A DNA stretch of 64,000 nucleotides from Homalodisca vitripennis (Eukaryota > Arthropoda > Insecta > Hemiptera > Cicadellidae): the NCBI RefSeq assembly GCF_021130785.1, contig NW_025778831.1, forward strand, positions 1 to 64,000, given 5' to 3'. The notes beneath the pieces were generated by a model. The model was not told the DNA's origin. It worked only from the letters and a program-made list of their open reading frames with translations, and did no database searches. Positions 36,636-62,302 of this stretch are shown here, piece after piece. Position 1 is the first letter of the stretch, and every line of letters begins with the position of its first letter. Position numbers and translations under genes: made by a program.

Positions 36636-36871
36636 TCAAAAAATAGTGGTGTGGGAGAAATTCCCTCATGTGCGGGAGAAATTCCCCTGCTCACACTCTT
36701 ATCCTATGAAAATGTTCCAAATTCTGTCGAAATTATCGTGTTTTTCGGTAAAATCGGTGATTTGGGGTGTCAAAATCGTTGTTTTTCGGTAAAATCGGTG
36801 ATTTGTTGGGTCCGGTGAGGGAGAAACGAGGGACGGAGGGAATTCCAATATGGCGGCGAGGGCGGGAAAAA

Positions 36872-37154
36872 TTGGCGGGAACAGGGGAACCTAACCTCAC
36901 TTTCTTGGTTTCCCGCGTATTCAATATGGCTGCGCCCATGATGAATTGGCGGGAACAGGGTAACCTAACCTCACTTTCTTAGATGGCTGCGCCCAGTTGG
37001 CGGGAACAGTAGAACATAACCTCAATTGTGAAATTGGCGGGAACAGGGGAACATAACCTCAATTGTGAAATTGGCGGGAACAGGGGAACATAACCTCAAT
37101 TGTGAAATTGGCGGGAACAGGGGAACATAACCTCAATTGTGAAATTGGCGGGAA
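36872..37154 (+). promoter_or_regulatory. Array of seven E2F-like sites in the TIR
   Basis: TTGGCGGGAA occurs at about 36,873, 36,946, 36,997, 37,034, 37,071, 37,108 and 37,145, the last four exactly 37 bp apart. The motif equals the classical E2F/DP site class. Mirror copies lie in the right repeat. An S-phase-linked enhancer or an origin-associated array is plausible but unproven. Confidence 0.55.
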
Positions 37155-37235
37155 GGTAAACTAAACAAGAGAAATAAAGACGAATCGTACCTTATTGTGT
37201 GATGCGGTGAGTCGATGTGGGCCTGGATGTGGTTT

Positions 37236-37335
37236 CGGAACATCCGTACTACGTATAGTACCCAGGTTAAACATTATCCAGTATAAGAATCGGTCCAGAG
37301 AGCTGGTAGACATCCTACGACTGGATAATGTCCCG
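37236..37335 (-). ncRNA. Candidate structured RNA element, copy 1 (3' of the RING gene)
   Basis: Read on the minus strand, this 100-nt element starts CGGGACA and ends TGTTCCG, which can pair allowing one G-U. Inside is an 11-bp stem (37,272-37,282 with 37,320-37,330) that encloses a CCAG/CTGG hairpin. Then follow the linker TTTAACCTGGG and a hairpin (37,246-37,251 with 37,256-37,261). Copy 2 at 51,026-51,138 has the same architecture with different stem sequences. It lies about 70 nt after the RING stop codon, in the same sense. I do not recognise it as a known ribozyme class. Confidence 0.5.
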
Positions 37336-37406
37336 TCCCTTTGGAATTTGGAATATAAATTTTGAATGTGAAGCCAATTGAATAATTAAGATAGAGGTAG
37401 AGAGAT

Positions 37407-39169
37407 CTACCTGGGGAGATATATTGTGAATCTTCCCACAATCAGCTCACGGCACGTGGGGCATCTATCCCCCACTCTGTTGGAGCATGGACGGCAGAGT
37501 GTATGCCCACACAGTCGAAGAGCGATTGTTGGTAGATTCGCAAAGCAAACGGGGCAGGACACTTCGCGGGGTTGAGTGGCAGGGGTTGATCCGTTGGACG
37601 GCACAGCGGTGTTTCTACGTCGGGAGTCCTCCTCCATGCGGGTAGCTGTCTCGTATAGGAAATCCGCGAGGATGCTACGGATTTCCTCCCAAGCGGCTGG
37701 AGCGACGGCACGGAACTCCTCCTCGGGTCTCCGCACCATCCACCGTTCGCGGGTTTCCTCCCAAGCGGCTGGAGCGGCGGCACGGAACTCCTCCTCCTCG
37801 GGTCTCCGCACCATCCACCGTTCGGTGTCGTAGACGGCCCCCTCACTGATGCCCTGCACCTGAGCGACTATACTCAGGGACCTTGACACCGCCCTCATTG
37901 CCTCCCATTGGGAATCTATGTCCTGTAACATAGGTAACGAATTAAACAGATGAAACACTACGTAGTGGCATGGATAATGTAGGGAATGAAACGTACTGCA
38001 GATGGTGAGAGGAGGGGTGGCGAGCCGGCAGCCACTTCCATGGATATGAGGGACTCCTGTGAGGTGGGGTCGGGGGAGAAACCAGAGTGGAAGGAGCCAC
38101 TACTGATGGGCGAGACTGTTGGTGGAGTAGACTGATTCAACCTCCGATAGAACTGAGAGAGATCCTCAGAGGACTGTCTCCGGGTCGAGGGGTTGCGTCG
38201 GAAGTCCCAAGAAGTACTCAACTGTCAACAAGAAATATCCATTTTTTGATTCTGTAAACAGAGCGAAACCTGCAATATAATATGAATGCCCTATATACTA
38301 ACCGAAATCGCCTCATCTGAGCTGGAATTAGATTCCTCCATCACCACCCTTTGAGTCGCCTCGTCGGGAAAAGTCGACGCCTCGGCTATAGCCCTATCGG
38401 CAGCAGCGATTAGACTCTCCTCAGAGATGTCAGAGGGGAGAGTGATGTTTGGGTTAGCATCACCGGTCCACCCGAGAGTCGATGGTTGAGACTCATCCTA
38501 AAGCACAAGTGAATTAATACATGGCGGGTCCCGCCACCGGTTGCGGGACTTAGCAGACACGAATACTGCACGAATGGAAAATAGGATAATGGTAATCACC
38601 TCTTCAATACCGGCGCTTATGACATGCAGTCGGCCGCGTCGAGTGGTCACCCATTGCCCAGACCTGAACATCCTCTGGATCTGAGCCTCGTACTCGTTCT
38701 GAAATAGAGTTCGATTATAGGGACTGCAGTAATGCGTAATTAGTACAATACAACGGTAACAATAGTGTACTGACCCTGGTCACCTCACGCTGAAGGACAG
38801 GAAGTGTAGCCCGATCATCACCATTATTCTGAAAAAGAGAAAAATAAAGTTAGAAAAGCTGCCACACACCTAAGGAGTAAAAATTAGAGTATTGAAATGT
38901 GAGCTAACCATATTCAGATGGACTATAGACCCGCTATCCGTAGTAAAGTATCGATCCCGGATAGCCCCGGGCACAGGGATCGGTTGACTCCTACGCAAAC
39001 CGTTTGAAGTGGATGGTTGTTCCTAAAAAACACTTTACAAGTTAGAAACAGTGTTGAGGGACAACTCGATAGAACAATAAATAATCAAAACAATAATTAC
39101 CTCGAGATCGTTGCCAGCCACCACCAACAGCAACATGGCGAAAACGGTAAAACTAGTTGCCACAGACAT
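37407..39169 (-). CDS. Seven-exon RING-finger protein, candidate E3 ubiquitin ligase
   Basis: Exons by position: 39,169-39,101, 39,022-38,909, 38,828-38,775, 38,698-38,600, 38,497-38,303, 38,221-37,997 and 37,922-37,407. All six introns are 74-102 bp, have GT-AG ends and are in phase 0, which makes the model coherent at about 423 residues. The ATG at 39,169 is about 45 bp downstream of a TATAAAAG box. The first exon encodes a hydrophobic stretch (FTVFAMLLLVVAG) resembling a signal peptide or membrane anchor, which is unusual for a RING protein. Exon 7 has two near-identical 24-25 residue repeats containing WMVRRPEEE. A C3HC4 RING lies at about residues 375-412 (CPVC, CGH, CRPC, CPTC). Capture of a spliced host gene, or a role in ubiquitin-based host control, is inference. 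It is the only visibly spliced gene in the element. Confidence 0.75.
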
Positions 39170-39213
39170 AGCAAAGCTATCACAGCAAGTGCAGCTGCAG
39201 CCGATGTACCGCG

Positions 39214-39221
39214 CTTTTATA
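39214..39221 (-). promoter_or_regulatory. TATA box of the RING gene
   Basis: TATAAAAG on the minus strand, about 45 bp before the chosen ATG at 39,169, in a GC-rich setting. This supports the first exon and the start. Confidence 0.6.
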
Positions 39222-39339
39222 CGCGGACGCCTCTCCCCCACCGAGACTCGCACTTGCACCGCATTAACTGCAATTTGTGACCCACGTTTCCACACCACGG
39301 TAAGCCAGAATGGCTAGGCCGTAGGGGTCCCAGTGCGTT

Positions 39340-39960
39340 TTTGATTATAGTGAGTTTCCCCAGTAGGCCTATTCTCACTCTTTCACTTTACTAATCACTT
39401 TACTCGGTGAAGCCTTTCAATGTGACCAGTATTTGTGTACAGCCCCAACCACCGCTGTACACGATAGCGATTCACTCCATTACAATGTATCGCTCCTCAA
39501 CATATTTTTGTCTCCTGTAAGTTTCAATAGCCACTTTACTCGGTGAAGCCTTTCAATGTGACTCAAAAACTTACCGGAGAATTTTACATTTTTTAAATTT
39601 TTTTTATTTTTTTACAGCATCTAGAGCGAGGTACATACCCCTGGACTTACGGAGTTTAGGCCTGCCATAGAGGTATCTGTCACACACACACACACACACA
39701 ACTGCTCCCGGTCTTACGGAGTTTAGGCCTGCCGTAAGAGCAGTAAAGAGCCCCAGGACTTACAGGTTTTACGCCAGCCTTAGGAGCTTACCAATCATTC
39801 ACCCCGCTCTAGAATTTTTCGTATCTAACCTACAGTCAAAAGTCACTTTACTCGGTGAAGCCTTTCAATGTGACCCGTCGGCGAGTCCTTTCAAGCCAAC
39901 ACGTCGGGATTCTCAACTAAATGCCGAACCCCTCCGCCCCTTTACTAATCACTCGCCGAT
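39340..39960. repeat. Intergenic region with short direct repeats
   Basis: No gene is seen. A 31-bp sequence beginning CACTTTACTCGGTGAAG and ending TTTCAATGTGAC occurs three times without change, at 39,396-39,426, 39,532-39,562 and 39,844-39,874. A second repeat, ACTTACGGAGTTTAGGCC, occurs at 39,645 and 39,712, and the latter copy is bounded by the inverted repeat CTTACGG/CCGTAAG. A CA microsatellite lies near 39,682-39,700. The core GGAGTTTAGGCC recurs in the other long intergenic region at 51,730-51,905. Confidence 0.7.
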
Positions 39961-39961
39961 A

Positions 39962-41060
39962 CTAATAAGCGTTGGTATTGTGCAGCTGTTTGTTAAGGAT
40001 CTCGAAACGGCACTTTGCTGCAATCATTGCGCATTTCACATTGGGATCCTCGGTTGACGTATGTTGTGGCAACGAGCAAGCAAACCTGTGTGTTGTTTTA
40101 CAGCTACACGGATTGCCGGCCTCCTCGCACACTATATCGTCCAGTTCACGGACATCACCGTGAAACTTTCTCAAGAACTCTGCCTTCTCCAACCCGCGCG
40201 TGTAAATCACGGCAAAGGGTTTGCATAGAGTGCGAAGTACATTAGCTCTGTAGGGATAATCACCCTCCTCCCAAGAAATCTTATGGTAGTTATCTTCAAG
40301 CCAGCGAGCTGTTGTACGATTTTTGGCGCTCAACCGTTCTCTAGGAAAAGGTGGTTTAAATATAATTTGACATTGAAAAGAGTTTCCCACGATCGCGAGC
40401 TCTTTAAGAATAAAGGGTCTTTTATTGCCTTGAAATGCGTGAAATTCAAACTACTGCCACATCCATTGGGCCAACGTTTGTACAAGGCCACTTCAAGAGC
40501 TAATTTATGAGCTGTGGAGCAGAGGAGTCCCTGACTATCTGCTTTTGCAAATACGTCCTCCTCTACCAACCCTGATGCTAGTGCGTGAATGGTAAACCGT
40601 ACAGACTCTTCGATAATAAAATTGTCTCTGAGAGCAATGTACATCAGAGGAAGGCTGTTTGTAAACTGAGTCCATTCGGCCTCGTTAAGCGTTAAAGTAT
40701 GCTCCCCGTCAAAGAGAAACACGTGCATACGACCGAAAAACATTTGTGACCTTGATATCCTCCTCCGTGTCCGATTTAATATAAAATTTGGTTTTATTCT
40801 CCAGAGCCAGGGTTATGGAATTGAAATGAGGAGTGATTTGATTGAACACATCGTGTGACCAATAAACGCATCCCTTTTTACCCTTAAAGAGAACCCCGAG
40901 AGAGTCACCCCGATTCTTAACAAACCCTACAATTACGCATTTTGAAAGATCACTATCCAAAAAGTAGACAGATCTAAGAAAAAACCCCGGTTAACGCATT
41001 GATACGCTCTTTACGTTTTGGAATCCGCGTGGGTTCCACGTCCATAGTCTGCGACTCCAT
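39962..41060 (-). CDS. Unrecognised protein, about 360 residues, frame-broken
   Basis: I do not recognise a family with certainty. Three overlapping frames (about 40,985-40,709, 40,743-40,330 and 40,390-39,962) read as one protein. The ATG at 41,060 starts a basic segment (MDVEPTRIPKRKERINAL). Frame changes fall near 40,985 (a run of A and C), 40,740 and 40,370. The last third contains YTRGLEKAEFLRKF followed by a Cys/His-rich stretch (CEEAGNPCSCKTTHRFAC) that could bind zinc. A CCAAT-containing motif shared with the polymerase upstream region lies 54-83 bp before the ATG. Role unknown; an early or nucleic-acid-related function is only a guess from that promoter motif. Confidence 0.45.
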
Positions 41061-41113
41061 CTCAACGTCTGACGTAAATTCTCAAATTTTACTTTTAGAC
41101 AGGAGAATTTCGA

Positions 41114-41143
41114 CCAATCAGAGACGCGCTTATTCTGACCAAT
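41114..41143 (-). promoter_or_regulatory. CCAAT-linked promoter motif, copy 1
   Basis: The plus strand reads CCAATCAGAGACGCGCTTAT then TC, with a second CCAAT at 41,139. Nearly the same sequence, CCAATCAAGGACGCGCTTAT then TC, is upstream of the polymerase gene at 56,381-56,402, in the same orientation relative to the downstream gene. Confidence 0.5.
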
Positions 41144-41741
41144 GAGATTTTTTAGCAGGTGGTTCTTCCCCCTCCACCTCCTCCTCCCATTCGTATGTGA
41201 AAGGATCTATCGAAAAAGAGACATAAATTTTGTCACAGTCCCTCACATCCCAGGCGTCGCCATGGGATGTTAAATTAGCACAGTTGATGGTTTTAATTGT
41301 TTTCAATTTTCCGTCCTTCCACAAGGAAGCGTATACTCCGGCTTTGATACCCTTTTTATACCCTTTCAGCTTCACATCATCCTCTCTGCAAAACCTAACC
41401 CTAATCCTGTCAAAACCCGTCACATCATAAAACTCACTATTAGGTGTGAAATTAGTACAGTCGAGGTATTTACATGTTTTCATTTCTCCGTCCTTCCACA
41501 AGGAAGTGTACACTCCGGCTTTTATACCCTCTCTATACCTATTTAGAGCCTGTTTAACAGGATTATCCTCATCATCCGTGTCGTATTCCTCGGGCTCATC
41601 GACTACCTCAAAACAAACCTCAATTTTGTTAAAGTCCTTAACATCATAAAAGTCGGTATAGGATGTACAATTAGTACAGTCGAGGTATCCCAATAATTTC
41701 CTCTCTTCTCCTTCCTTATAACTGAAAATGTATAGCGCCAT
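41130..41741 (-). CDS. Unrecognised acidic protein with three internal repeats
   Basis: 203 residues from the ATG at 41,741; an upstream GTG extension is less likely because a TATAAATT box lies at 41,799-41,806. The protein is three copies of a module of about 60-70 residues with the pattern S-W-K-D-G-x-x-K-T, then L-D-C-T-N, then F-Y-D-V-x-x-F-D-(K/R)-I-x-V-x-F. The modules look beta-rich and regularly spaced, which suggests a repeated small fold, perhaps sugar- or protein-binding. It ends in an acidic then basic tail (EEEVEGEEPPAKK). The open frame is unbroken. Its 3' end overlaps the promoter motif of the next gene. I cannot assign a function. Confidence 0.6.
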   Translation of the reverse strand: MALYIFSYKEGEERKLLGYLDCTNCTSYTDFYDVKDFNKIEVCFEVVDEPEEYDTDDEDNPVKQALNRYREGIKAGVYTSLWKDGEMKTCKYLDCTNFTPNSEFYDVTGFDRIRVRFCREDDVKLKGYKKGIKAGVYASLWKDGKLKTIKTINCANLTSHGDAWDVRDCDKIYVSFSIDPFTYEWEEEVEGEEPPAKKSHWSE

Positions 41742-41798
41742 CGTTGCGAGAGTGTTCAACACTGGGTAGGTAATGTACGTCGGCGTAGGAGTCGCTCA

Positions 41799-41806
41799 AT
41801 TTATAC
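41799..41806 (-). promoter_or_regulatory. TATA box upstream of the triple-repeat gene
   Basis: TATAAATT on the minus strand, 58 bp before the ATG at 41,741. Just upstream, at about 41,812-41,867, a 19-bp sequence containing CCACCCTAACAATTA is repeated three times. Confidence 0.5.
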
Positions 41807-41882
41807 AATTACCCCACCCTAACAATTACCCCCACCCTAACAATTACCCCCACCCTAACAATACAGCCCCTGTGTTGCGGTA

Positions 41883-42218
41883 TCACGGGAAGGGTTCAAG
41901 TAGAAACTGTAATCTCGAAAGAAACGGATCGTTCATTTCAGCTAACTGATCCAAAATCGTAATCGAACCCCTAATGTATGAATCCATATAGTGACACTGA
42001 CAAGTGTCAGGACCTGACGTAGCGTCGGGCCGTGCCCACGCGCATTCCTTGAAATGGCCGTATCTATAAGAGTCACTGGGCACTCTAACTGTAGGTCTAA
42101 AGCGAGCAAAGAGTCTTCGCATGCCCTCGACCTTGTAGAGTAGTTCGTTCTTTAATGTTAGGTATCGAGTCGCCTCGACCGAGTCAGGCTCGTTTAGAAA
42201 ACTGTTTAGCTTCTCCAT
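41883..42218 (-). CDS. Unrecognised 111-residue protein
   Basis: The ATG at 42,218 lies 34 bp below a TATAAGTA box, and the frame is open throughout. The N-terminal half is helical and charged (MEKLNSFLNEPDSVEATRYL). The middle has RYGHFKECAWARPDA followed by CQCHYMD, a small Cys/His cluster that might bind metal. No signal peptide or membrane segment is visible. It sits immediately downstream of the major capsid candidate in transcription order, which hints at a structural or assembly role, but that is inference from position. Confidence 0.5.
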   Translation of the reverse strand: MEKLNSFLNEPDSVEATRYLTLKNELLYKVEGMRRLFARFRPTVRVPSDSYRYGHFKECAWARPDATSGPDTCQCHYMDSYIRGSITILDQLAEMNDPFLSRLQFLLEPFP

Positions 42219-42251
42219 GACACAGAATGAGACACATGTACAAAATTTAGC

Positions 42252-42259
42252 TACTTATA
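42252..42259 (-). promoter_or_regulatory. TATA box of the 111-residue gene
   Basis: TATAAGTA on the minus strand, 34 bp before the ATG at 42,218. Confidence 0.45.
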
Positions 42260-42285
42260 AGTGTTTAACCACCCCACCACCGCTC

Positions 42286-43476
42286 CTACACCATCCGCTT
42301 AACGTTACCCGTGAGCAGAGTGTATGCCAGGTGTGAGTCATATAGTACTAAGCAGTAAGCCGCAGTGTTTGCAGCAATAGCGTTTTTAGTCTCAAACTCC
42401 AGACGCACGTCTACGGGGCCAGTTTTTATTGAATCATTCTGCTTGGAGCAGTCAATAACATAGAGAGGTACGTTACTTTTAAACGTGTTGAAATCAACTG
42501 TAGGGGCACCTTGTATCTGGTAGTATGAGCTCTGGAATCTGGTAAACATGTCGTAGAAAATGCGTAGATCACCATGGATGTTATCGTACGGGAAGTACTG
42601 TGAATTCAGAAACAGTTTGATATTGAGTAGATCGCAGTGATCAAAGCTGGAAGCGTCTTTTTTCAAATTGTTCTTCCTTCCAGTCTGGAAACCTAAAATC
42701 ACGTAACGAGGTTTTTCAATTTGGGTACTCGTTTTTATTGTCCAACTATGACGTGTTGTCAACGGCAAACTGGGGTACTCGTGAATTTCCCATGATCGAA
42801 ACGGAAGGTGAATCAGTGTATCTTTCTCGACCATACGCAACAGCTTTAACCTGTGGCTGTCTGATATTGTAATGTAAGGAACCCTCCAGTACAAGTCAGT
42901 TATATCAAGATCAACAGTAGCAGCGTCAGCTGAAATTACAGCATTGTTATCAGAGGCGGCTCTCAGAAGAACCAACTCTTGTTTACTGTTAACCACTACC
43001 TTTTTGTAATCTTCGAAAAATCCCATCAATGTCCTAACGGGAACGGCGTAATTGAACTCTTTAACAGCGTCTGCGGAATTATTCGCCCCGAGCCACCCTC
43101 CGTTAGCCAGACTCATTTTTTCATTTTCCTTAAAAGATACCAGTCCTTTGATCGTCGTAGTTATGCCGACACTGCGTGTTTTATCGATTACTTGACCGTT
43201 CAACTCGTAACGAATCTCATCAAATAAATGTGCCATTGAGTTGTTCACTAGATTTACATTGCAAGCACTGCCGTCAGCTTTTTTAGCCTGCAGCGTCCCT
43301 TTAACATGTATGAAGCTTTCGAACGGTGCTGTGATTATGTCTTGCTGACTAATCGGTATTCTGATTTCATCGTTATTCTTAAACGTAGACGAGGCGTACG
43401 GTTTATGGGTATGAAATTCCCACCCCGTTACGACTTCATCGTACATTGCTCCGGACTCTATCGATAGAAGCGCCAT
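42286..43476 (-). CDS. Candidate major capsid protein (double jelly-roll type)
   Basis: 396 residues, unbroken, ATG at 43,476. It would form the capsid shell by assembling as trimers. The sequence has the look of hexon-like double jelly-roll proteins and of the F54H12.2-like proteins common in invertebrate genomes: alternating beta-strand segments, an early NNDEIRIPI stretch, an internal LFDEIRYELNGQ segment typical of jelly-roll capsid proteins, a late LLNIKLFLNSQYFPY segment, and a closing strand pair near RLEFETKNA. It is shorter than the roughly 600 residues of many Polinton capsid proteins. Its neighbour is the putative minor capsid gene, as in most Polintons. Assignment rests on context and pattern, not on a structure search. 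Confidence 0.6.
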   Translation of the reverse strand: MALLSIESGAMYDEVVTGWEFHTHKPYASSTFKNNDEIRIPISQQDIITAPFESFIHVKGTLQAKKADGSACNVNLVNNSMAHLFDEIRYELNGQVIDKTRSVGITTTIKGLVSFKENEKMSLANGGWLGANNSADAVKEFNYAVPVRTLMGFFEDYKKVVVNSKQELVLLRAASDNNAVISADAATVDLDITDLYWRVPYITISDSHRLKLLRMVEKDTLIHLPFRSWEIHEYPSLPLTTRHSWTIKTSTQIEKPRYVILGFQTGRKNNLKKDASSFDHCDLLNIKLFLNSQYFPYDNIHGDLRIFYDMFTRFQSSYYQIQGAPTVDFNTFKSNVPLYVIDCSKQNDSIKTGPVDVRLEFETKNAIAANTAAYCLVLYDSHLAYTLLTGNVKRMV

Positions 43477-43587
43477 ACTTAAAGCCTAGAGACTTTAGAA
43501 ACTTTATGTTCTTTGATGTTAACGCTGCCACCTTTCGGTGATTACTGACCAGTGTGTGGCTCGGCAACTCTCTAAATACTAGACCCA

Positions 43588-44115
43588 TTATTGTTTTCTT
43601 ATATGCAAGCGTAGTGAGACTATCTCGTTACGGAAATTAATCAATCTGCCGTCCTGGTCCTTGAGTGTTACGGAAATGTTGTTCACTCTACGAACGTTCA
43701 CCGGTAAATAGATTACATTGGCGGGTTTCTCAACTATTTTATAGCCTGGGGCCACTTCAGGATAGAACTCATGCAGCACGTGTCCCTCTACACCGTTTTG
43801 AAAGGATCCTCGTGCGATATTGCATTCAACGCGTATAGTATTTACATTCATTATGTTTATGGGGACATCGGATGTGTGTACCCTGCCTGGCTCAAGTGGT
43901 TTTTTACTGAACCCTAGTAGGGGAGCGATTGTCTGTTCTCTGTCAAAGTGTATGATTTTATTACAAGTGATTTCGGATTTTAGCGTATTATTGTTTCCTT
44001 TCAGACTAAATGTCACATCCGCGCCTAAATGGGATTTGATGTATTCTTCGATATTTTCAATTTCGTACGACCCCTCTGCTATCTTGATTTGTTTATTGTC
44101 ACCGTAATAAAACAT
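43588..44115 (-). CDS. Candidate minor capsid (penton-like, single jelly-roll) protein
   Basis: 175 residues, unbroken, ATG at 44,115. Polintons encode a small single jelly-roll protein beside the major capsid gene that forms the vertices. Here the length, beta-rich pattern and position fit. Recognisable segments are the N-terminal YEIENIEEYI, LLGFSKK, MNVNTIRVECNIARG, HEFYPEVAPGYKI, and a C-terminal stretch with VYLPVNVR-like strands and ending RLHIRK. I recall similar small proteins in other invertebrate Polinton-like elements. No catalytic motif is visible. An alternative is another structural protein of the same block. Confidence 0.55.
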   Translation of the reverse strand: MFYYGDNKQIKIAEGSYEIENIEEYIKSHLGADVTFSLKGNNNTLKSEITCNKIIHFDREQTIAPLLGFSKKPLEPGRVHTSDVPINIMNVNTIRVECNIARGSFQNGVEGHVLHEFYPEVAPGYKIVEKPANVIYLPVNVRRVNNISVTLKDQDGRLINFRNEIVSLRLHIRKQ

Positions 44116-44246
44116 ATCGTTTTATTCCCGTTTCAATATTTGGAATCGTATAGTATGTGGAGAGGTCAACTAGACCAATTTCGTAATCACCATCGCTCAC
44201 GTCCATTGGAGGAAATACCTCGCATGATACCTGTGGAGCAGGACCG

Positions 44247-44689
44247 CTAAGTGAAAACATTACTGCTGAGAAACTTTAAACACAAGTGTCCGCAGACTAC
44301 TGAGCCCTCACTCTGTCTTCTCTCGTAATTATACCGTACGTTAACGTCTGGTCCTAGGTATGATATAAGCTCTATTGGTGGTCTTAGGTTACCAAAAACT
44401 GTCAAAGTAGTATACCCTGTTACCTAACTTCCTGTAACACACCCAATGTGTACCTTCACCGGCCGAGTTATCCAGATTAATTATGGCCGATTCATACGAT
44501 CGTGGGCGTTTGGGGTAGAGCGTCTCTCATATAAACTCCACGGAAATTCGGAATATTAAGTAGTTTCGCGTAGTGTACTAGCTCGTAATTTGATAACGGT
44601 TTTACTGGTACCGACGTTTTTTTTTTATTGCAACACCTCCTCTTCTTTCTTACCCCACCGCCTCTCTTTGGATACGGCTTGAGGTACAT
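44247..44689 (-). CDS. Adenain-like cysteine protease, frame-broken
   Basis: This protease matures capsid precursors in adenoviruses and Polintons. ATG at 44,689, 8 bp after the phospholipase stop; a GTG start at 44,746 is rejected because it would overlap that gene. The N-terminal part is basic (KPYPKRGGG, VRKKRRC) and then has LNIPNFRGVYMRD. After a frame change near 44,486 comes the catalytic His in EGTHWVCY and an acidic residue in YYFDSF. After a second change at a T run near 44,385 comes the catalytic Cys in the CGHLCLKFL segment. The stop is at 44,247-44,249. All parts of the H-acid-C triad are present in order. As read, the protein is cut short after 65 residues, but both breaks are single-base slips of the kind seen across this window. 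Confidence 0.7.
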
Positions 44690-44699
44690 ACCCTGACCT

Positions 44700-45161
44700 T
44701 TACGTTTTGGGCTTCCCTCGCTTGCTCTTCCGCCTCTTCCCTCCACCGAGGGCTGTTTTGGTCTTCATGGCTCCTGTTACAGCTAAGGCTGCGGCTCTTT
44801 CCCCAATACTTGCGTCGGCCGATTTGACTCTTTCCCAGGCTCTTTTGGCTAATTCTTTGTCGGCTTCTCTTCGGTGTTCGGAATCCCTGTATTTTGAGTA
44901 CGCTATATCGTGATTTTTACAATATTCGTCCAAGGGATTTATACCCTTATCACCCCTTGCCAATCTCACCCCTAATTTCGTACCTGGACCACAGTATCGG
45001 TACCCACCAGGTAAATGGAGTTCGACAGGTAGAGCGTCAATTGCACGGTTCAAAAGATTTCCAGCGACCGATCCGGCGTTTTGCAAAGCGCTCGAAACCA
45101 GACCTCTTCCTCGCTTGACGGTTCGTTTCAATCTGTTTCGCTTTACTTTGTGCTTTCCCAT
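44700..45161 (-). CDS. Phospholipase A2-domain protein, parvovirus VP1-like
   Basis: 153 residues, unbroken. It contains the two signatures of the parvoviral-type PLA2 fold: a calcium-loop YCGPGT at residues 56-61 and the catalytic LDEYCKNHDIAY around His84-Asp85. In parvoviruses this domain opens endosomal membranes during entry; a similar role for a capsid-associated protein here is inferred. Both ends are strongly basic (KHKVKRNRLKRTVKRGRG and GGGKRRKSKRGK), suggesting nuclear targeting or DNA binding. It starts two bases after the stop of the previous gene and is followed 10 bases later by the protease start, so it lies inside a packed structural block. Key residues look intact. Confidence 0.85.
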   Translation of the reverse strand: MGKHKVKRNRLKRTVKRGRGLVSSALQNAGSVAGNLLNRAIDALPVELHLPGGYRYCGPGTKLGVRLARGDKGINPLDEYCKNHDIAYSKYRDSEHRREADKELAKRAWERVKSADASIGERAAALAVTGAMKTKTALGGGKRRKSKRGKPKT

Positions 45162-45162
45162 T

Positions 45163-45485
45163 TTATTCCCTTATATACCGTAATACGTTATAGAGTTGCC
45201 TGAGCAGGGTCTCCCTAACACATGTGATCTGCAGTACGTCAAAGATATCCGCCTCGGATCTTGTAACCACTCCTGTAAACTCGTCGTACTCCAGAACGTG
45301 ACTGTCTGTTATAAAGTACAGACGGCCATTTATATATCTGAAACCTCCTCTAATTCCATCAGGGACTCCTGGCAACACGCTACTGGTCATACCCAACATA
45401 GTGCCTCTGAGAGTGCATTCGTTAAGTTCTACAACAAATTTGTCATCGGTAAAAATGTCAGCTGCTCACATATAAATAAAACCAT
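45163..45485 (-). CDS. Unrecognised small protein of about 107 residues
   Basis: I chose the ATG at 45,485 because it overlaps the stop of the fibre gene as TGATG, the pattern used elsewhere in this block; that needs one base slip at a T run near 45,455. The safe open part starts at an ATG at 45,399 and gives 78 residues. Visible features are GGFRYINGRLYFIT and a C-terminal helix (RETLLRQLYNVLRYIRE). No known motif is seen. Between the fibre and phospholipase genes a virion role is likely, but this is inference. Confidence 0.45.
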
Positions 45486-46657
45486 CACGGTTTCGATCTC
45501 ACCCTGCTCACTGGGTCTTTAAAGTATGGGTCGACAATGTTGAACCTAATCCACTCGTCTTTATCGGTTAGGTGTATAGCGTCTAGCGTCGGAGCCAGTA
45601 GTTTGTACATTTCCGTAAAAGACTTCGCTCACCACTCTCACCAGATAATTAACAGACACAGCGTCACTCATGTCGACAGGGTCGCCCACAAGTTTCAATC
45701 TTTTATTCCTACAATTCCACGTGTCACCGTCGAGTATCGGAGTGTTCACTTTAAGGTATCCTCTATTAACAGCATCTCCGTCATACAGCGGAGAAGCTAC
45801 TTGACTTAATCGTTTACGTCCAAATAACCATTTATCCTTATCCGTATCCGGTGTTCTTTCCTTCACATAATTTACAGTGCACGCGTCGGTATCTTCTTTA
45901 GGTTCGGCAACATTAGAAACTCTGTAATTATTAAAGATAACTGTTCCGTCCGCAATACTTTTAGTAGCAGGCAATAGATTTTGAAACTGAGAGAGTGTAA
46001 CGGCATCGTTTGGTCCTTGACCATCGGCTACATTCACTAGTCTCCTCTTTTTAGCGTCGATCGTGTCCTTGTCTATCGCCAGCGTTTTTTTCATTCAGTT
46101 TCCTGTTCAAAGTCTGTAGGTTTACACCGTCGCCAGCGAGAAGAGGATCAGCCATCTGTCCGAGTCTTTTGTTATCACATTCCCAGACTTTACCATCACT
46201 ACTTCTTTTTAGAGTGTTCGTTTTAAGATATTTTAGCGTCACTGCATCTGTATCCCCCGCGGGATCACCTATCATGCGCAACCTGTAGTTGTCAAACCTG
46301 TAATATTTGCTGTTTGTGTCCTTATATGGTACCTCCCTAGCAAGACGGCGAAGAGTCAGAGCATCGGTCCAGAGTAGAGCATCACCTATGTTGCTAATTC
46401 TGTTACCTTTAGCGTCCATCACATTTTTCTTGGATACAAGCGAAACGTCAGACACAGTCTTGAGGACTGCGCTATCCACATTATTTTTCAAGGTCTGCAG
46501 GTTTATAGCGTCTAGACTGTGCTGGGCGTCGGCCACGTTACATAACCGCTTGCCCTTGATATCGTAGTTTGCCGTCGACTGTGAGACTGAATCCTTGTCC
46601 AGGCGGACCTCTCTTACTTCCTTCACGGACCGTATGACCAAACTTGTCAACACTCAT
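45485..46657 (-). CDS. Fibre-like repeat protein, about 390 residues, frame-broken
   Basis: Eight copies of a repeat of about 40-50 residues with the core K-R-L-x-N-V-x-D-P, four variable positions, D-A-V and then Y-L, for example RISNIGD, RLVNVAD and RLKLVGD. Such repeats are typical of trimeric fibre shafts in phage and large-virus receptor-binding proteins. The N-terminus (MSVDKFG) matches the start of the upstream neighbour (MTVNKFG). The ATG at 46,657 overlaps that gene's stop as ATGA. Frame changes occur close after the start, in an A run near 46,090 and near 45,605. The last frame ends at 45,485-45,487. A spike or receptor-binding function is inferred from repeat type and context. Confidence 0.6.
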
Positions 46658-47017
46658 TGTGCAAGTGATGAAGACTCCTCCTGTACATTGCTCTTTATAA
46701 ATATCTTATCCCAGTCAATATATGTGTTTTCATCAACATCTAAGACGCCGTGGAAGCGAGCTGGAGGTACGGTAGTGTGTATCTTATTGATCCAGTGAAA
46801 TAGTTGAACTGCTAGACGCCTTATAACTTCTTCATTTGTATTTTGTAAGCTGTTTATTTGATTCTGCTGAATAAGCGCTTGATTCTGAAGGATTGCAATT
46901 TGAGAGTACAGTCTTCTTACATCTTTCTTTAGCTTTTTGTTTACAGTATTTCGTAACTCTCTGAATGTCTTGCTTCTTCAGAGATTGTGGCCTCTGACCA
47001 AACTTATTGACGGTCAT
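46654..47017 (-). CDS. Coiled-coil protein beside the fibre gene, about 120 residues
   Basis: ATG at 47,017, overlapping the preceding stop as ATGA; its own stop at 46,654-46,656 overlaps the fibre ATG in the same way. The N-terminus MTVNKFGQRPQ is nearly shared with the fibre protein. After a frame change near 46,920 the protein continues with a glutamine-rich heptad region (IAILQNQALIQQNQINSLQN), then an aromatic segment (LFHWINKIHTTVPPARFHG) and an acidic tail. The shared start suggests both proteins dock to the same capsid partner, like the N-terminal tails of adenovirus fibres. Family unknown. Confidence 0.55.
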
Positions 47018-47989
47018 CTCATCAATGATCTGAATCTCGCGTTACCATCACCTGATATAGTCTTTGATTCTTTGAGTTCTTCGATAATGTTTATTATTTC
47101 GTTCCTATGTCCCGTGTTACCGGTCTCTGCTGAGGACACGAGGAGTCTGAGTCTGTCACACAGTTCGTTTGGGTCATCATAGTAGATAGGGTCTGGTGCT
47201 CCTACATCCTTATACCCGCTAACCGGTCTTTGGGAAAGAGTTGAGAAATAATGACTTTGTATTTCGTTGAAGCGTTACGGTTCACGTGATTTTTATAATT
47301 GTAACTTCTCTTGTGAGCAGACGACAGTGTCAATATATCCTTGTAAGCTCTCATATCGTTTACGTTGTAACGTTTGTCATCAGGCAGACGATTAAAAAGC
47401 AATTCATAAAGTCCCTGTGTAGGTCTGTAGGACCGTTCACCTACGAGTATGCTACCGTCATCTCCAAATGATAACTTCTTATCTCCTACCATTAGCGTAT
47501 TGTTGTCGTAGCGTGGTCCGTACGTATGGTCGATCTTACTATGTTTACCTGACATATCCTTCATCATACTTGTCATGTACCTTATGGTTAGTGGATGAGA
47601 GAACGTGTTCTGTATCCATGCAGATGCTGAGAGTTGTCCTTCTTTCGTGCTGAGTATATCACTGACGTCTGGTGACGACGGTCCTGCTTCAAGCACATCA
47701 TCGTCCTGCAGGAACGCAGGTGTTTTGGGGGGTTGACATAACGTCCGGAGTGAACTGTACGGCTGCCTCATCTTCATTTTCCTCTTCTTCTTCTTGCTTT
47801 GGTTCGGTTTTCGGTTCAGTTTTTACAGATCCTGTTTGTTTTTCGTAACTCTGACAGGATAGGTTTGTACTGTTTTTCTAGAAATACGTCTGTGGCCAGA
47901 GTTCCTTCTCTGAACTGTTTATACTTTTGCTTTATAGCTTTCCTCAAACGAGTTATACTGAGAGTAAGGTCCTTCTCCTTTGAAGCCAT
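47014..47989 (-). CDS. DUF8207-like protein, about 325 residues, frame-broken
   Basis: ATG at 47,989. The N-terminal helix region (LRKAIKQKYKQFREGTL, then KQYKPILSELRK), an acidic linker, a central module with YGPRYDNNTLMVGDKKLSF and GLYELLFNRLPDD, and a C-terminal YYDDPNELCDRLRLLVSS segment fit the DUF8207 proteins I recall from insect and cnidarian Polinton-like elements. Function is unknown. Frame changes lie near 47,845, in a C run near 47,735 and near 47,210. The stop at 47,014-47,016 overlaps the next ATG. Position at the head of the structural block suggests a virion or assembly protein; this is inference. Confidence 0.6.
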
Positions 47990-48049
47990 TGTTTAAACTG
48001 ACAATGTGACTCGGTTTTAGTACTTTAATACTAACTACTTTATGGCAGT

Positions 48050-49189
48050 TCAAACCTGTCTAAAGAAGAGGGCTCGTTTTTTATGCTTTCTTAGAAAGCG
48101 TACGACCTGCTTTAGTGACACCACGGTACCTAGCCCTCTTAGGTAAACTGTTCTCGGTATCTGTACAGGTCTATCAGGGTCCCTGAACACAAAGGTCCTT
48201 TTCCATCCGTCTCTCCACTGGGGTATCTCAGCTACAGTATACTTGTCACTCTCCACGTGCTTTTCCATATATTGTTTCAGATGCTCTATAGGTCTGTTCA
48301 CCCTACTGTGTATGTGAATCATGTAAGAGTTGAGTAACCAGAATTCACTTGGATTAGCTCCTGTAAAAACTCCTCCAAGCCTCAAACTGTTTGGTATTTG
48401 TAATTGAGTAAGTCCCGTCACGCAGTGTTATTCCGAACTTATCGCAGTACATTGGTACGGTCGGTAAAGCCAATTTGAGAAATTCTGTCGTAAACAGACT
48501 TTGACAAAGATTGTTTACCAACCCAGCAAAATCTTTCTTCCTTTGACCTCGCGGGTAAACCGTCTGGGACGGGGCCGTAACCTACGTTGTAGCTAATGTC
48601 AATGTAGCACTTTGAAGCTAGAGCACGATTGTAGATCTTGACAGGGTTCCTGATTGGTATTGTTCTCTCTGTAATGAGAATACAGCGAGCTGCATGCGGT
48701 ATGTTACACCCGTACTGGAGCATCCTTATACAGGTCTGCGCAAAGTTTACACTACCATGAGCGTTTCTCAACGGTACGATTTGACCGAATTGATCGGGAA
48801 ACGGTCTGAATCTGGATAACATGTTCTGTGGATTTCTTACCGTACTATTTTAGCATGTCCTCGTGGTACACCACGAGTTCGAGCGGTACCCCTTTGTTTT
48901 GACTTCTTTTCACAAACTCTATCCATATATCGCGATTGTAGAACCGTTCGCTTGCTGAAATCATTAACAAGATTACGGGTGGTAGACTAGCACTGTACAT
49001 CCCTACACGCTTATGTCTCCAGCACCTCCTATTGAAGAGAAAACCATGTGGTCCGCGTCTGCTACAGTAATTACCGCAAAACTTTTTCTTATCGGCATAG
49101 TACCAGGTGCACAGGTTTGAATGGACTTTGTTGGATCTCTGGATTGAGAAACCTCTGAGGTCATTGTAGTGGTATATCCTTACCATCAT
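48050..49189 (-). CDS. Glycosyltransferase-like protein (Core-2/I-branching type?), frame-broken
   Basis: Three consecutive segments (49,189-48,845, 48,822-48,439 and 48,421-48,050) read as one protein of about 380 residues with slips at an A run near 48,848 and near 48,420-48,450. The ATG at 49,189 overlaps the ATPase stop as ATGA. Visible landmarks are PPVILLMISASERFYNRD, a basic Cys-rich stretch before it, PLRNAHGSVNFAQ, CILITERTIPIRNPVKIY followed by KCYIDISYN, and a C-terminal QWRDGWKRTFVF then RKHKKRALFFRQV. The TERTIPIRNP...YIDISYN block resembles the region around the conserved Ser-Glu-Ser-Cys-Ile-Pro-Leu of Core-2/I-branching (GT14) enzymes. If right, the element may modify its own or host glycans. 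This is a weak pattern match, so the product may be something else. Confidence 0.4.
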
Positions 49190-49875
49190 AGATCTTGAAT
49201 GAAACTATCGATTCCGATACGATACCTGCCTTTATCAATGTCACAGTCCTTGCATATGACCAGGAAGCCGTGTCTGTCTTTCCACGCCAGAGCACACATT
49301 TGTTTAAACTTTTCAAAGTCTATATCGGTATTGACGTGGTCACTGTATGCATGGTGAAGGTTTGTTTCGTCTTGTTTGAATAGTACGATAAAGTTGGCAT
49401 TGTCTCTAACGAGCTGTTTGGGTATATGGCTGTAGGTCTGACCTAGGTAGAATGTGTCAATATTCTTGTGTCTACCCATGGTGAAGTAGTTTCGTATATT
49501 GTTATGTTTTTCACAGGCTATGTCGTCGAATATCATTACTGAATTCTGTTTAGCCTCACTCGGGTGTATGACAGATGCATTGTCATCATACGCGTGGTAT
49601 CCGATCTCTTTCGGCATAATCTTGGATAGTAGCTGGTACTTTGGTTGGTAGAGTGATTTTGAAAACACGTAAACATTTTCAAATCTCAAACCGTTAGGAT
49701 CTACCAATAGGTTAAACAGTACGTTCGTTTTACCGCAATTGGACGGTCCAACAATTAATCCGCGAATCGTGTCAGGTAGCAGAGGACCGTTTTTATTTGT
49801 ACGATTCATACCACCACCTACAAACTCGTCAAAGTTTCTCACTGGTAATTTCACAGATTGACTAATCAGTCTCAT
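49186..49875 (-). CDS. A32/FtsK-HerA type DNA-packaging ATPase
   Basis: 229 residues from the ATG at 49,875, chosen over an upstream GTG because it starts a family-like N-terminus (MRLISQSVKLPVRNFDEFVG) and a TATA box lies 38 bp before it. Walker A is GPSNCGKT at residues 43-50 and Walker B is SVMIFDD at 112-118, followed by the conserved DTFYLGQTYSHIPKQLVRDN region with its sensor Gln. The enzyme pumps DNA into the preformed capsid. The frame is intact. It follows the integrase and its stop overlaps the start of the next gene as ATGA, a usual arrangement for compact viral blocks. The family assignment is firm. Confidence 0.9.
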   Translation of the reverse strand: MRLISQSVKLPVRNFDEFVGGGMNRTNKNGPLLPDTIRGLIVGPSNCGKTNVLFNLLVDPNGLRFENVYVFSKSLYQPKYQLLSKIMPKEIGYHAYDDNASVIHPSEAKQNSVMIFDDIACEKHNNIRNYFTMGRHKNIDTFYLGQTYSHIPKQLVRDNANFIVLFKQDETNLHHAYSDHVNTDIDFEKFKQMCALAWKDRHGFLVICKDCDIDKGRYRIGIDSFIQDL

Positions 49876-49912
49876 TGTCGAAGATAAACTAAGTTGCACA
49901 TTATTATGACAT

Positions 49913-49920
49913 AGTATATA
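49913..49920 (-). promoter_or_regulatory. TATA box of the ATPase gene
   Basis: TATATACT on the minus strand, 38 bp upstream of the ATG at 49,875. It supports the internal ATG rather than the longer frame. Confidence 0.5.
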
Positions 49921-50036
49921 AAGTAACAGAGCTGAACTGGTAGCCCTCCTGGACGTTGGAGCGCACAGCTGCATCCGCTCCCACGCAGCGGCTGGTGCAG
50001 CTGCATCCGGTCCCACGACTGCAGTTGCAGTCACAC

Positions 50037-50964
50037 TCAGTGTGTGGTGATGTCATGCTTGCTCACCCATGTGTCACTGTTTTTATCGAACCCTTGCCAT
50101 CTAACAAGTACTTTGTCTCCTTTCCGCCTCAACACTTTCTCAACTAGATATACATTACCAGTTTTGGACCTGAGGAGTTCTTGTTCATAAAACCCACCTT
50201 TCAATACTTCACCTTAGAGTCTTGTAGAATGTACGTTACGGGTTTTGTAGGTTTTATTGCATATACTGTAAATACTTCATTTGTCCAGTTAGGCAGATAA
50301 CCTTTTTTAAAAACTCCTTTGTATTTGCTAATCCTTACCTTATCGTTTAGCTTGAATTTAGTGATTTTAATTTTTTGTTTTCTTTTTGTGGTTTTGTTTA
50401 AACGGACAAGGATTTGTTTTTACGTGTTTCTGTTTTAACGTCTTTTGGTTTCATACCGATTGTTCTGTGGACATTATTATTGTACTCCTTGACTATATCA
50501 GATAGAATACTGAACCATTCGTAACTTCCACGTGTCGTGAATTTTCTATACATTTTCTCTTTTAATGTTTCTGTTTAGACGCTCTACAATAGAGCTTTTC
50601 AGATGTGAGTAGGTCGAGTAAAGGTTTATTTTATATTTGTCCATTAGCTTTTTGACGTGAGTTGTTGTACCACTCCTTACCCTGATCAGTCTGAAGGTTT
50701 TTCATCTTGTGTTTAGACAGTATAGGTTCTAGTGCATGCGCGACTTCTGCACCGGTCTTGTTTTTTAAAGGAATGGCAAAACGCAAGTTTACTAAAGCAG
50801 TTTATCATTGTCAATATATACTTGTAACCTTTGTTCACCCTTGAATACGGGATCATCTCTACTAGGTCAGCCTGGTATAGATCATTGAGTCCCTTCAGCG
50901 TAACCCTGCGTCTGGGATAGTTTTTCCTAGCCGGTTTGTGCAGTTCTTTCGCTATCGCGTCCAT
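50037..50964 (-). CDS. Polinton integrase with C-terminal chromodomain, frame-broken
   Basis: A retroviral-type DDE integrase that would insert the linear element into host DNA, making 6-bp duplications. ATG at 50,964, 34 bp below a TATAAATA box. Catalytic residues appear in order: D in YQADLVEM (near 50,865), D in LQTDQGKEW (near 50,685) and E in SSIVERLN (near 50,585). Downstream is a basic SH3-like stretch (NDKVRISKYKGVFKKGY) and then a chromodomain-like segment with YLVEKVLRR and VLVRWQGF at about 50,060-50,150. Slips occur near 50,770, 50,655, 50,570, 50,395 and 50,215. No N-terminal HHCC zinc finger is seen. The stop is at 50,037-50,039. The chromodomain suggests targeting to methylated histone tails, known from chromoviral integrases. 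Confidence 0.82.
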
Positions 50965-50997
50965 CTTTCAAAATGAAGAAAAAAATCTGTATACCGG

Positions 50998-51005
50998 TAT
51001 TTATA
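50998..51005 (-). promoter_or_regulatory. TATA box of the integrase gene
   Basis: TATAAATA on the minus strand, 34 bp before the integrase ATG at 50,964, so the leader can be only a few bases. Confidence 0.55.
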
Positions 51006-51025
51006 TTAGTCTAAGTGGTGTGGTT

Positions 51026-51138
51026 TGGAACACCCACATCGAACACTCGCATGCTCGATGCCCAGGTTAAACAGTATTTGATTTTTAGGGCCAGTCCAGA
51101 AGTAACTGGTTGTCGCCCGGTGACCAAATACTGTCCCA
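51026..51138 (-). ncRNA. Candidate structured RNA element, copy 2 (3' of the BC-box gene)
   Basis: Read on the minus strand, this 113-nt element starts TGGGACA and ends TGTTCCA; relative to copy 1, the outer pair changes from C-G to T-A. A 9-bp stem (51,072-51,080 with 51,125-51,133) encloses a CCAGT/ACTGG hairpin. The linker TTTAACCTGGG is identical to copy 1, and the last hairpin pairs 51,037-51,042 (CATCGA) with 51,055-51,060 (TCGATG). It lies 12 nt beyond the stop codon of the upstream gene, in sense orientation, and before the integrase TATA box. Confidence 0.5.
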
Positions 51139-51149
51139 TCCCTTGTTGC

Positions 51150-51518
51150 TTAGACAATGGAATAATCGCACATGCAACGCCCGGTCCTATAGTAAAAGAG
51201 CCGATTGTTACACGATGTGCACTCCCATAAACTACGCATTGTGTAAAATGTATCTTCCGTGAAGTAATACGCGGTCGACGATTCTTTTTGCCAAACAGCT
51301 GAACGGTCTCGAGCACACATATGACAAAGTCTGCGTAGTCCGCGTCCGTCGTAAACTTCTTTGTATCTGACTACCAATTCAAAGCAGTATTCAAGATGTT
51401 TAGATTTAATTTCCCGACGGATGGATTCGGGGATCTGGTTATATCGTAAGAAGTCAATACGGTGTTGGGCAATTTGCCGCAGACAAAGATCATAGAGGCT
51501 CTTTGGGTTCCACGCCAT
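51150..51518 (-). CDS. Small protein with SOCS/BC-box-like motif and zinc ribbon
   Basis: 122 residues, unbroken, ATG at 51,518. Residues about 6-15 read SLYDLCLRQI, which fits the Elongin B/C-binding BC box (S/T/P-L-x-x-x-C-x-x-x-hydrophobic). Just after it comes YNQIPESIRREI, where a Cullin box would sit, though LPxP is not exact. The second half has CHMC, CTSCNNRLFYY and CMCD, arranged as a possible zinc-binding fold. The sum suggests a substrate adaptor for a Cullin-RING ubiquitin ligase; this would be a host-interaction gene. It is followed by structured RNA copy 2. Function is inferred, and similarity to other Polinton proteins is from memory only. Confidence 0.5.
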   Translation of the reverse strand: MAWNPKSLYDLCLRQIAQHRIDFLRYNQIPESIRREIKSKHLEYCFELVVRYKEVYDGRGLRRLCHMCARDRSAVWQKESSTAYYFTEDTFYTMRSLWECTSCNNRLFYYRTGRCMCDYSIV

Positions 51519-62005: not shown

Positions 62006-62302
62006 TGCGTTAATAATTTTAAATAGGTGATGGAAGTTATCTTGGTTGGCAACATGTTTTTGATTTATCACATCTTCAGACCCTCGCGCCCTTACCCTAC
62101 GCTGTGATGAAGGGTTATTAATTACGATAGTTCTTTAACAGTGGAACTGGCAAATAATGGTTAGCTCTCTAGTAAATTCAAAGCTCCCACACTTGATGAA
62201 TACAGAATCATTTTAATGAAACCAATTTAAAACATGCCCTCGGAGGGAGAAAAACATTATTATGTACATACTCAGCCACTGAAATATTGGAAGAAGAGAA
62301 TG
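62006..62302. other. DNA beyond the right arm: nothing seen
   Basis: AT-rich stretch between the end of the inverted repeat and the 138-bp tandem array. No gene or repeat recognised. Confidence 0.4.

What the first reader, a model, noticed from the sequence alone, without database searches (positions are those of the whole stretch)
37236..51138. Two diverged copies of a covarying three-stem RNA-like element, each just 3' of a gene
Minus-strand copies at 37,335-37,236 and 51,138-51,026 share the order: GGGACA, long stem with inner CCAG/CTGG hairpin, linker TTTAACCTGGG, hairpin, TGTTCC. The linkers are identical, but the long stem is CATTATCCAGT/ACTGGATAATG in one copy and CAGTATTTG/CAAATACTG in the other. 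The last hairpin is GTACTA/TAGTAC versus CATCGA/TCGATG, and the outermost closing pair changes from C-G to T-A. Changing stems with preserved pairing and fixed linkers is the signature of a selected RNA fold. Both lie 12-72 nt after a stop codon in sense orientation (RING gene and BC-box gene). A 3'-end processing signal, stability element or ribozyme are possibilities; I matched it to none I know.
Basis: partly seen in the sequence, partly recalled or inferred. Interest (0 to 1): 0.87.

Follow-up and report, generated by a model that had tools for sequence, protein, structure and literature searches.

The report
Covarying RNA element in Polinton 3'UTRs
A virus-like jumping element (a Polinton) in a large eukaryotic genome carries a folded RNA about 110 letters long just after some of its genes; sister families changed the letters of its stems but kept them paired, so the fold itself looks selected, and it matches no RNA family we could find.

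Summary
Both copies lie on the coding strand of a ~20.3-kb Polinton (423-nt TIRs). A covariance model of only these two copies found homologues in other Polinton families of the same genome (E 1e-17 to 1e-33). Four diverged types allow a test: in stems A1, A2 and B, 26 of 26 two-sided changes still pair, against 2-6 of 10-15 with the partner slid. G.U (33 cells) far outnumbers A.C (1 cell), so the sense-strand RNA, not a DNA cruciform, is selected. New here: an inner stem, a 3' hairpin, a possible pseudoknot, an outer stem on copy-2-site elements, and conserved junctions. A genome-wide motif gives 654 matches against 0 in its control; 47 of the 54 rows on one contig are this element. It follows four gene types in sense; at one rearranged locus it lies 3' of a gene and not at the promoter. 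No Rfam match; exact-pattern scans elsewhere found nothing real. Best reading: a new cis-acting 3'UTR RNA working at mRNA 3' ends. Mechanism (3'-end definition or protection, or a new ribozyme) is not shown, and all homologues come from one genome.

The parts
37225..37341 (-). RNA element copy 1 (core: AAGGGACGGG to ACATCC), between the RING ORF and the left TIR (20 nt before it)
   Evidence: Coordinates; CM hits; fold z -3.23
51017..51144 (-). RNA element copy 2 (core: AAGGGATGGG to AACCACACC), between the 122-aa ORF and the integrase promoter
   Evidence: Coordinates; CM hits; fold z -4.68 and -5.07 with P1
51149..51155 (-). P1 5' strand of copy 2, GTCTAAG (contains the TAA stop of the 122-aa ORF)
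   Evidence: pairs with 51009-51015
51009..51015 (-). P1 3' strand of copy 2, CTTAGAC
51123..51134 (-). Stem A1 5' strand, copy 2 (pairs with 51071-51082)
51071..51082 (-). Stem A1 3' strand, copy 2
51095..51110 (-). Apical hairpin ACCAG...CTGGA (A3), copy 2
   Evidence: CCAG/CTGG pairs identical in 17 of 17 rows
51062..51070 (-). Linker TTAACCTGG, copy 2
   Evidence: Identical in 17 of 17 rows of A5
51036..51061 (-). Stem B hairpin, copy 2
37271..37331 (-). Stem A (A1, A2, A3), copy 1
37262..37270 (-). Linker TTAACCTGG, copy 1
37246..37261 (-). Stem B hairpin, copy 1
37225..37245 (-). Hairpin C (GGATGT/ACATCC) with loop UCCG able to pair with CGGG at 37332-37335
37407..37931 (-). ORF with a RING finger, upstream of copy 1
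   Evidence: Pfam zf-C3HC4_3, E 1.6e-8
51150..51518 (-).
50998..51005 (-). TATAAATA box before the integrase frame (ATG at 50964)
   Evidence: 13 nt after ACCACA in 41 of 41 copy-2-type and 2 of 2 t41-type elements in hand
36782..37204 (.). Left TIR of the Polinton
   Evidence: Inverted repeat I2, 423 nt, 100%
56627..57049 (.). Right TIR of the Polinton
   Evidence: Inverted repeat I2

Best explanation
It is a selected, structured cis-acting RNA in the 3' untranslated ends of Polinton mRNAs. A 12-bp stem (A1) carries an inner stem (A2) and an unchanging CCAG/CTGG hairpin; a second hairpin (B) and a third (C) follow. Conserved single-stranded junctions, probably joined by a YGGG-UCCR pseudoknot, make a compact core, and copy-2-site elements are closed by an outer stem P1. 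SHOWN: the fold, from compensatory changes and strand-specific G.U pairs; its position 3' of several different genes in sense orientation; several hundred motif matches in the genome. INFERRED: the conserved junctions form one site that is read at the mRNA 3' end, by a protein or by the RNA's own tertiary fold, to define or protect that end, so that a compact run of same-strand genes is kept apart from the next promoter or the TIR. Binding to a factor, or shielding from nucleases, is the step I think most likely; it was not tested.
For: CM R1, built from the two window copies only, hits 8 of the 11 regions fetched from more diverged Polintons. In one search it hits 20 of 24 loci, but 14 of these 24 had been fetched by similarity to the element; of the other 10, chosen by the ATPase gene, 6 have it. 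It also hits L090. Three contrasts among four types in A1+A2+B: 26 of 26 two-sided and 9 of 9 one-sided changes stay paired; slid partners give 2-6 of 10-15. On A5 (17 chosen rows, 28 pairs): 97.2% of cells paired, 16 pairs with two-sided change, covariation score 0.586 against shuffled mean 0.297 (reached by 0 of 500) and at most 0.134 when slid. G.U 33 cells in 10 pairs against A.C 1 cell. Sites: after the RING ORF, the 122-aa ORF, gene X and a 153-aa ORF. In L084/L090 the integrase promoter has no element and an element lies 3' of gene X. No A(A/T)TAAA within 150 nt downstream in 73 of 76 copies in hand (one copy has only 62 nt).
Against: No transcript data: that the element is in an mRNA 3' end is inferred from position. 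The missing A(A/T)TAAA is weak, because the copies are homologous and the motif is not expected often in 150 nt. At the copy-2 site the element keeps a fixed 13-nt distance to the TATA box, so a promoter role there is not excluded. P1 is absent from copy-1-site elements (7 of 17 rows) and damaged in one more (L085). L084 is one locus. No element was found at this site in the three loci of the 52% family (L087-L089). No copy-1 partner was found in the fetched downstream stretches L042, L044, L046. In the t41 type hairpin C is imperfect. Cells count related rows many times. All homologues come from one genome.
Confidence: 0.55

Rival explanations
1. A new class of self-cleaving ribozyme: it cuts the transcript just after the gene, ending the mRNA and stopping read-through into the next promoter or the TIR.
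For: Branched architecture with a possible pseudoknot, many conserved unpaired letters and freely changing stems is the usual look of a catalytic RNA; place between a stop codon and the next TATA box.
Against: No Rfam ribozyme model matches; hammerhead CUGANGA in 0 of 17 rows; HDV-like features not met (membership test). No cleavage data.
Confidence: 0.2
2. A separate small noncoding RNA made or processed from this place (for example a Pol III transcript like adenovirus VA RNA, or a decoy of a host defence protein), not a part of the mRNA's 3' end.
For: Compact fold; a run of five or more T lies within 80 nt after the element in 51 of 76 copies (29 of 30 t50 type, 22 of 41 copy-2 type), and after the window's copy 2, which could serve as a Pol III terminator.
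Against: Full B box in 0 of 17 rows and the core GTTCRANNC in 1 of 17; the T run is absent in 3 of 3 copy-1-type and 2 of 2 t41-type copies; no tRNA found.
Confidence: 0.13
3. A DNA-level element (cruciform, replication, packaging or promoter site) whose palindromic arms mimic RNA covariation.
For: Fixed 13-nt spacing to TATAAATA in 41 of 41 copy-2-type and 2 of 2 t41-type copies; copy 1 lies next to a TIR.
Against: 33 G.U cells against 1 A.C cell is not expected if both strands counted alike; the L084 promoter keeps CTTAGAC and TATAAATA without the element; 3 of 3 copy-1-type and 25 of 30 t50-type copies have no TATAAATA within 60 nt.
Confidence: 0.06
4. A stem-rich small insertion or repeat inside Polintons without function; the covariation is chance or conversion between copies.
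For: Copies are shuffled between sites, including a chimera (L090) and tandem arrays (L049, L051).
Against: 26 of 26 compensatory changes across four types need selection on pairing; 38 of 47 element rows on contig C1 have a same-strand partner within 25 kb, as expected for sites fixed within Polintons; the other 9 were not looked at.
Confidence: 0.04

Closest known systems
Mimiviridae 3' hairpins (PMC4402537; search listing and start of abstract seen only)
   Same: Structured RNA at the ends of viral transcripts marks where an mRNA ends in a DNA virus genome.
   Different: Per the abstract those are hairpin-forming palindromes, with a viral cleavage enzyme and poly(A) polymerases, in the cytoplasm; here the element is a branched fold with conserved junctions. 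No such enzyme turned up among the 10 window ORFs scanned; none was specially sought.
HDV-like self-cleaving ribozymes (features recalled)
   Same: Order of helices: short 5' strand, second 5' strand, hairpin, return strand, hairpin, closing strand, if AGG/CCU and YGGG/UCCR are real.
   Different: P1-like helix only 3 bp, P3-like stem 12 bp plus further stems, no evident catalytic C, conserved letters upstream of any would-be cleavage site (by inspection).
Adenovirus VA RNA (recalled)
   Same: Structured RNA in a DNA virus of a lineage related to Polintons.
   Different: VA RNA has internal Pol III promoter boxes (recalled); the B box is absent here, though T runs often follow.
Hammerhead ribozymes in giant Penelope-like elements (PMC6431247; passages seen)
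   Same: RNA folds carried by very large mobile elements.
   Different: Different element class and no hammerhead core here.

Membership tests
Any Rfam 15 family | Covariance-model match | tested here: not met
   No match at E<=1 in the 64-kb window; for 6 loci 3 matches at E 0.88-3.7, all far below gathering score and none over the element
Hammerhead ribozyme | CUGANGA core | tested here: not met
   0 of 17 rows
HDV-like ribozyme | About 7-bp P1 between the 5' end and the strand after P3 (recalled) | tested here: not met
   By inspection only AGG/CCU, 3 bp and unchanging, is available in that position
HDV-like ribozyme | Catalytic C in J4/2 and self-cleavage | not testable with these tools
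   No conserved C between stem B and UCC by eye; activity not testable here
Twister ribozyme | Rfam twister model match | tested here: not met
   (that Rfam holds twister models is recalled); individual twister nucleotides were not tested
Pol III small RNA (VA-like) | B box GGTTCGANNCC | tested here: not met
   0 of 17 rows
Pol III small RNA (VA-like) | T-run terminator after the RNA | tested here: inconclusive
   T5 within 80 nt in 51 of 76 copies, absent in the copy-1 and t41 types
tRNA-like element | tRNA call | tested here: not met
   ARAGORN 0 genes in 36700-57100
Histone 3' stem-loop | GGYYYTTYTNARRCC (recalled) | tested here: not met
   0 of 17
Selected structured RNA (general) | Compensatory changes across homologues | tested here: met
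   26 of 26 in three contrasts
Selected structured RNA (general) | Strand-specific G.U tolerance | tested here: met
   33 G.U against 1 A.C cell
cis-acting 3'UTR element | Lies in sense orientation 3' of coding genes | tested here: met
   at the loci looked at
cis-acting 3'UTR element | Present in the mature mRNA and changes its fate | not testable with these tools
   No RNA data held

The most novel reading that the evidence does not exclude
A new catalytic or self-sufficient 3'-end-forming RNA: Polintons of this lineage end and insulate their tightly packed genes with a home-made branched, pseudoknotted RNA instead of host poly(A) signals. It would be one of several structured 3' modules in a shuffled kit that also includes the GGCCTAAAC, GAAAGGCTTCACCGAG and CAGCG-GGGGCTG hairpins.
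Probability: 0.2. Interest if true: 0.87.

Novelty: new variant of a known kind. Interest (0 to 1): 0.66.

Why it matters
I found no report of a structured cis-acting RNA in Polintons/Mavericks in the searches (open-licence PMC only; for the long result lists only the top 8-19 papers were shown; passages of two papers were read). If confirmed, it opens how these virus-like elements end and control their transcripts, and gives a ready test case, with hundreds of natural copies in one genome, for finding a new ribozyme or RNA-protein contact.

Tried and rejected
IMG/VR exact-pattern scans: whole element 0, 3' half 0, looser 3' half 3 stretches that are chance: two are the same coding-like stretch (L091, L093), one differs (L092), and none matches the CM; 5' half 0. 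ATPase-based scans of IMG/VR gave 0 and one distant locus, L009, without the element. Prokaryote genome contigs: 0 for one exact pattern. These scans would miss diverged relatives. Stop-codon readthrough was considered, because the 122-aa ORF's stop lies inside P1, and rejected: at the copy-1 site and in L041 the element is about 65 and 240 nt after the stop. A third copy in this Polinton was looked for with the better model R2, filters off; the next match is E 2.2. New stem-B types with A as first letter: 3 matches, all looking like variants of known types; 6 matches, all of known types by look.

Rows dropped: A5 holds 17 copies chosen by me; 76 copies with intact flanking motifs were in hand, and near-identical ones were left out. 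The counts (flanks) and 117 see only copies that fit their pattern; L082, for example, has lost one C of UCC and is not in them. In one search the copy-2 type is represented by L043, because the window's own copy 2 has a C-U mismatch at one A2 pair (not paired in 6 of 17 rows); the t50 type lacks the last A1 pair. In one search the row for window copy 1 used a wrong index and was redone.
Full report
What and where. The window is contig C2717 of an unnamed 2.3-Gb assembly. The two copies lie in a Polinton bounded by 423-nt perfect terminal inverted repeats at 36782-37204 and 56627-57049. Pfam finds a double-jelly-roll capsid domain (E 1.5e-106), a Pox_A32-type ATPase (4.5e-8), a phospholipase A2-like domain (1.7e-12), a RING finger (1.6e-8) and a DNA polymerase B piece (6.8e-5, below its cut-off). 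The frame starting at 50964 is called integrase because the matching intact frame of a relative (L041, 312 aa) has the rve integrase core (E 2.9e-8). All 17 ORFs of at least 100 aa here are on the minus strand. Copy 1 follows the RING ORF by 72 nt and ends 20 nt before the left TIR. Copy 2 follows a 122-aa ORF by 12 nt and ends just before the TATAAATA box of the integrase.

Homologues. A covariance model of just these two copies (R1) finds only them in the window, but finds relatives in other Polintons of the same genome: 13 matches in 11 of 14 loci (8 of the 11 regions, none in L042, L044, L046), 20 matches in 20 of 24 loci (14 of these 24 had been fetched by similarity to the element, and of the other 10, 6 have it; none in L084, L087, L088, L089) and one in L090. 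A pattern of the linker plus the 3' loop has 654 matches in the genome and 0 for the reversed control (about 100 rows were listed). Of the 54 rows on contig C1, 47 are this element in four stem-B types and 7 are another repeat; 38 of the 47 have a same-strand partner within 25 kb. The genome-wide number of true copies is therefore of the order of several hundred (inference).

Is the fold selected? Four types differ enough for a test: copy-1 type, copy-2 type, t41 (L041) and t50 (L050). In stems A1 (12 bp), A2 (5 bp) and B (7 bp), three contrasts show 26 two-sided and 9 one-sided changes, all still pairing. With the 3' partner slid by 1-3 columns, 2-6 of 10-15 two-sided changes pair. Of three further, non-independent contrasts in the same call, one has a single broken pair (copy-2 type with t50). 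On the 17-row alignment A5 the 28 pairs give 97.2% paired cells, 16 pairs with changes on both sides (2 of 500 shuffles reach this) and a covariation score of 0.586, against a shuffled mean of 0.297 and at most 0.134 when slid. One measure goes the other way: the number of further pair types is lower than in shuffles (29 against 34.1, 500 of 500). G.U occurs in 33 cells of 10 pairs and A.C in 1 cell, which says that the RNA of the coding strand is what pairs; the cells count related rows many times. MFE z-scores are -3.2 to -5.7 for the eight folds made.

Anatomy beyond the finding. (i) A2, for example AGGGC/GCCCU, GGAGU/ACUCC and AGGAU/AUUCU. (ii) Hairpin C at the 3' end (GGAUGU/ACAUCC, GAGUGU/ACACUC, GGUGU/ACACC; imperfect in t41). 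(iii) Outer stem P1, GTCTAAG/CTTAGAC, in 9 of 17 rows, with one letter changed in L085, extended by CC/GG in L090 and AT/AT in L041; the 7 copy-1-site rows lack it. (iv) Conserved junctions AAGGGAYGGG (one row AAAGGA), ACCAG..CTGGA, TTAACCTGG and AACCACA. (v) A possible pseudoknot: YGGG before A1 with UCCR in the loop of C; Y and R go together in 75 of 76 copies (C-G or T-A), one being C-T. This is one evolutionary change seen many times, and YGGG can also pair with CCUG of the linker in some free MFE folds, so the pseudoknot is likely, not proven.

Context as evidence for function. The gene upstream of the element differs between sites and families: the RING ORF; the 122-aa ORF; gene X (186 aa in L051, 55% identical to a 152-aa open frame in L090; perhaps a distant relative of the 122-aa ORF, E 3e-4 over 46 residues); and in L041 a 153-aa ORF without similarity to the 122-aa one, about 240 nt away. 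L049 and L051 have two elements in tandem; in L051 each stands after a gene and before a TATAAATACC box. In L084/L090 a 130-aa ORF, weakly similar to the 122-aa one (27%, E 3e-5), stands head to head with the integrase; the integrase promoter keeps CTTAGAC and the TATA box but has no element, while an element lies 3' of gene X, in sense, facing the end of the 130-aa gene. This single locus speaks for a link to gene ends, not to promoters. Against it, at the copy-2 site the TATA box is exactly 13 nt after ACCACA in 41 of 41 copy-2-type and 2 of 2 t41-type copies. After the RING stop there is no AATAAA or ATTAAA on the minus strand up to the end of the Polinton; after the 122-aa ORF none for about 520 nt; in 73 of 76 copies none within 150 nt after the element. 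This fits an element that takes part in 3'-end formation, but is weak statistically. A run of five or more T follows within 80 nt in 51 of 76 copies, which would also suit a Pol III terminator; no full B box is present in the 17 rows.

Known or not. No Rfam match at E<=1 in the window, and only weak sRNA matches away from the element in six loci. No real match in exact-pattern scans of IMG/VR or prokaryote genomes. Literature: 'polinton' with 'pseudoknot' gave 0 papers; 'polinton' with 'ribozyme' gave 10, of which I read passages of two that do not describe this; of the other searches I saw the top 4-19 titles and starts of abstracts, none on it. Only open-licence papers are held. The nearest concept is the hairpin-marked mRNA ends of Mimiviridae (PMC4402537, listing and start of abstract).

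Verdict. The observation and the claim of a selected RNA fold are right. The best reading is a new structured 3'UTR RNA element of Polintons that acts at the mRNA 3' end. What it does there, and whether it is catalytic, is open. The main weakness is that every homologue comes from one genome, in effect four types.

Noticed in passing
window minus strand at 51893, 51838, 39775, 39729, 39662; also L041, L045, L042, L046, L048, L050: A second recurrent structured motif around GGCCTAAAC (or GGGCTAAAC, GGCGTAAAACC), between genes, with flanking arms that change yet look complementary.
   Followed up: partly
window minus strand at 39867, 39555, 39419; also L048: Three copies of a hairpin around CACATTGAAAGGCTTCACCGAGTAAAGTG in one intergenic stretch; the region 39620-39380 minus folds with z -5.85, while the neighbouring stretches tested do not stand out (z -0.63, -0.29).
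   Followed up: partly
window minus strand 39457; L087-L089 (two each): Hairpin TACAGCG.TGG..GGGGCTGTA whose ends covary (GTGTACAG/CTGTACAC, CATACAG/CTGTATG, TCTACAG/CTGTAGA); in the 52% Polinton family it sits upstream of the integrase-like start, where copy 2 sits in this one.
   Followed up: partly
L090 54-185: A chimeric element: 5' half of copy-1 type, 3' half of t50 type, so parts of the element recombine between sites.
   Followed up: partly
L084 and L090 (contig C9 near 158.09 Mb): A 130-aa gene, opposite in strand to the integrase and head to head with it, in one Polinton copy.
   Followed up: partly
window 37422-37551 + strand: The strongest fold z-score of the scan (-5.37) lies over the RING ORF, antisense; not explained.
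   Followed up: no
window 4-12 kb against 29-33 kb and 57-58 kb; 62157-63423; 33640-36301: Large inverted repeat arms (for example 8945-9410 with 31758-32223), a 138-bp tandem array and a 74/81-bp tandem array outside the Polinton.
   Followed up: no
window 50000-50964 and 53376-55915, minus strand: The integrase and polymerase B frames of this Polinton copy look interrupted; another copy carries a longer integrase frame (L041). Not pursued.
   Followed up: no
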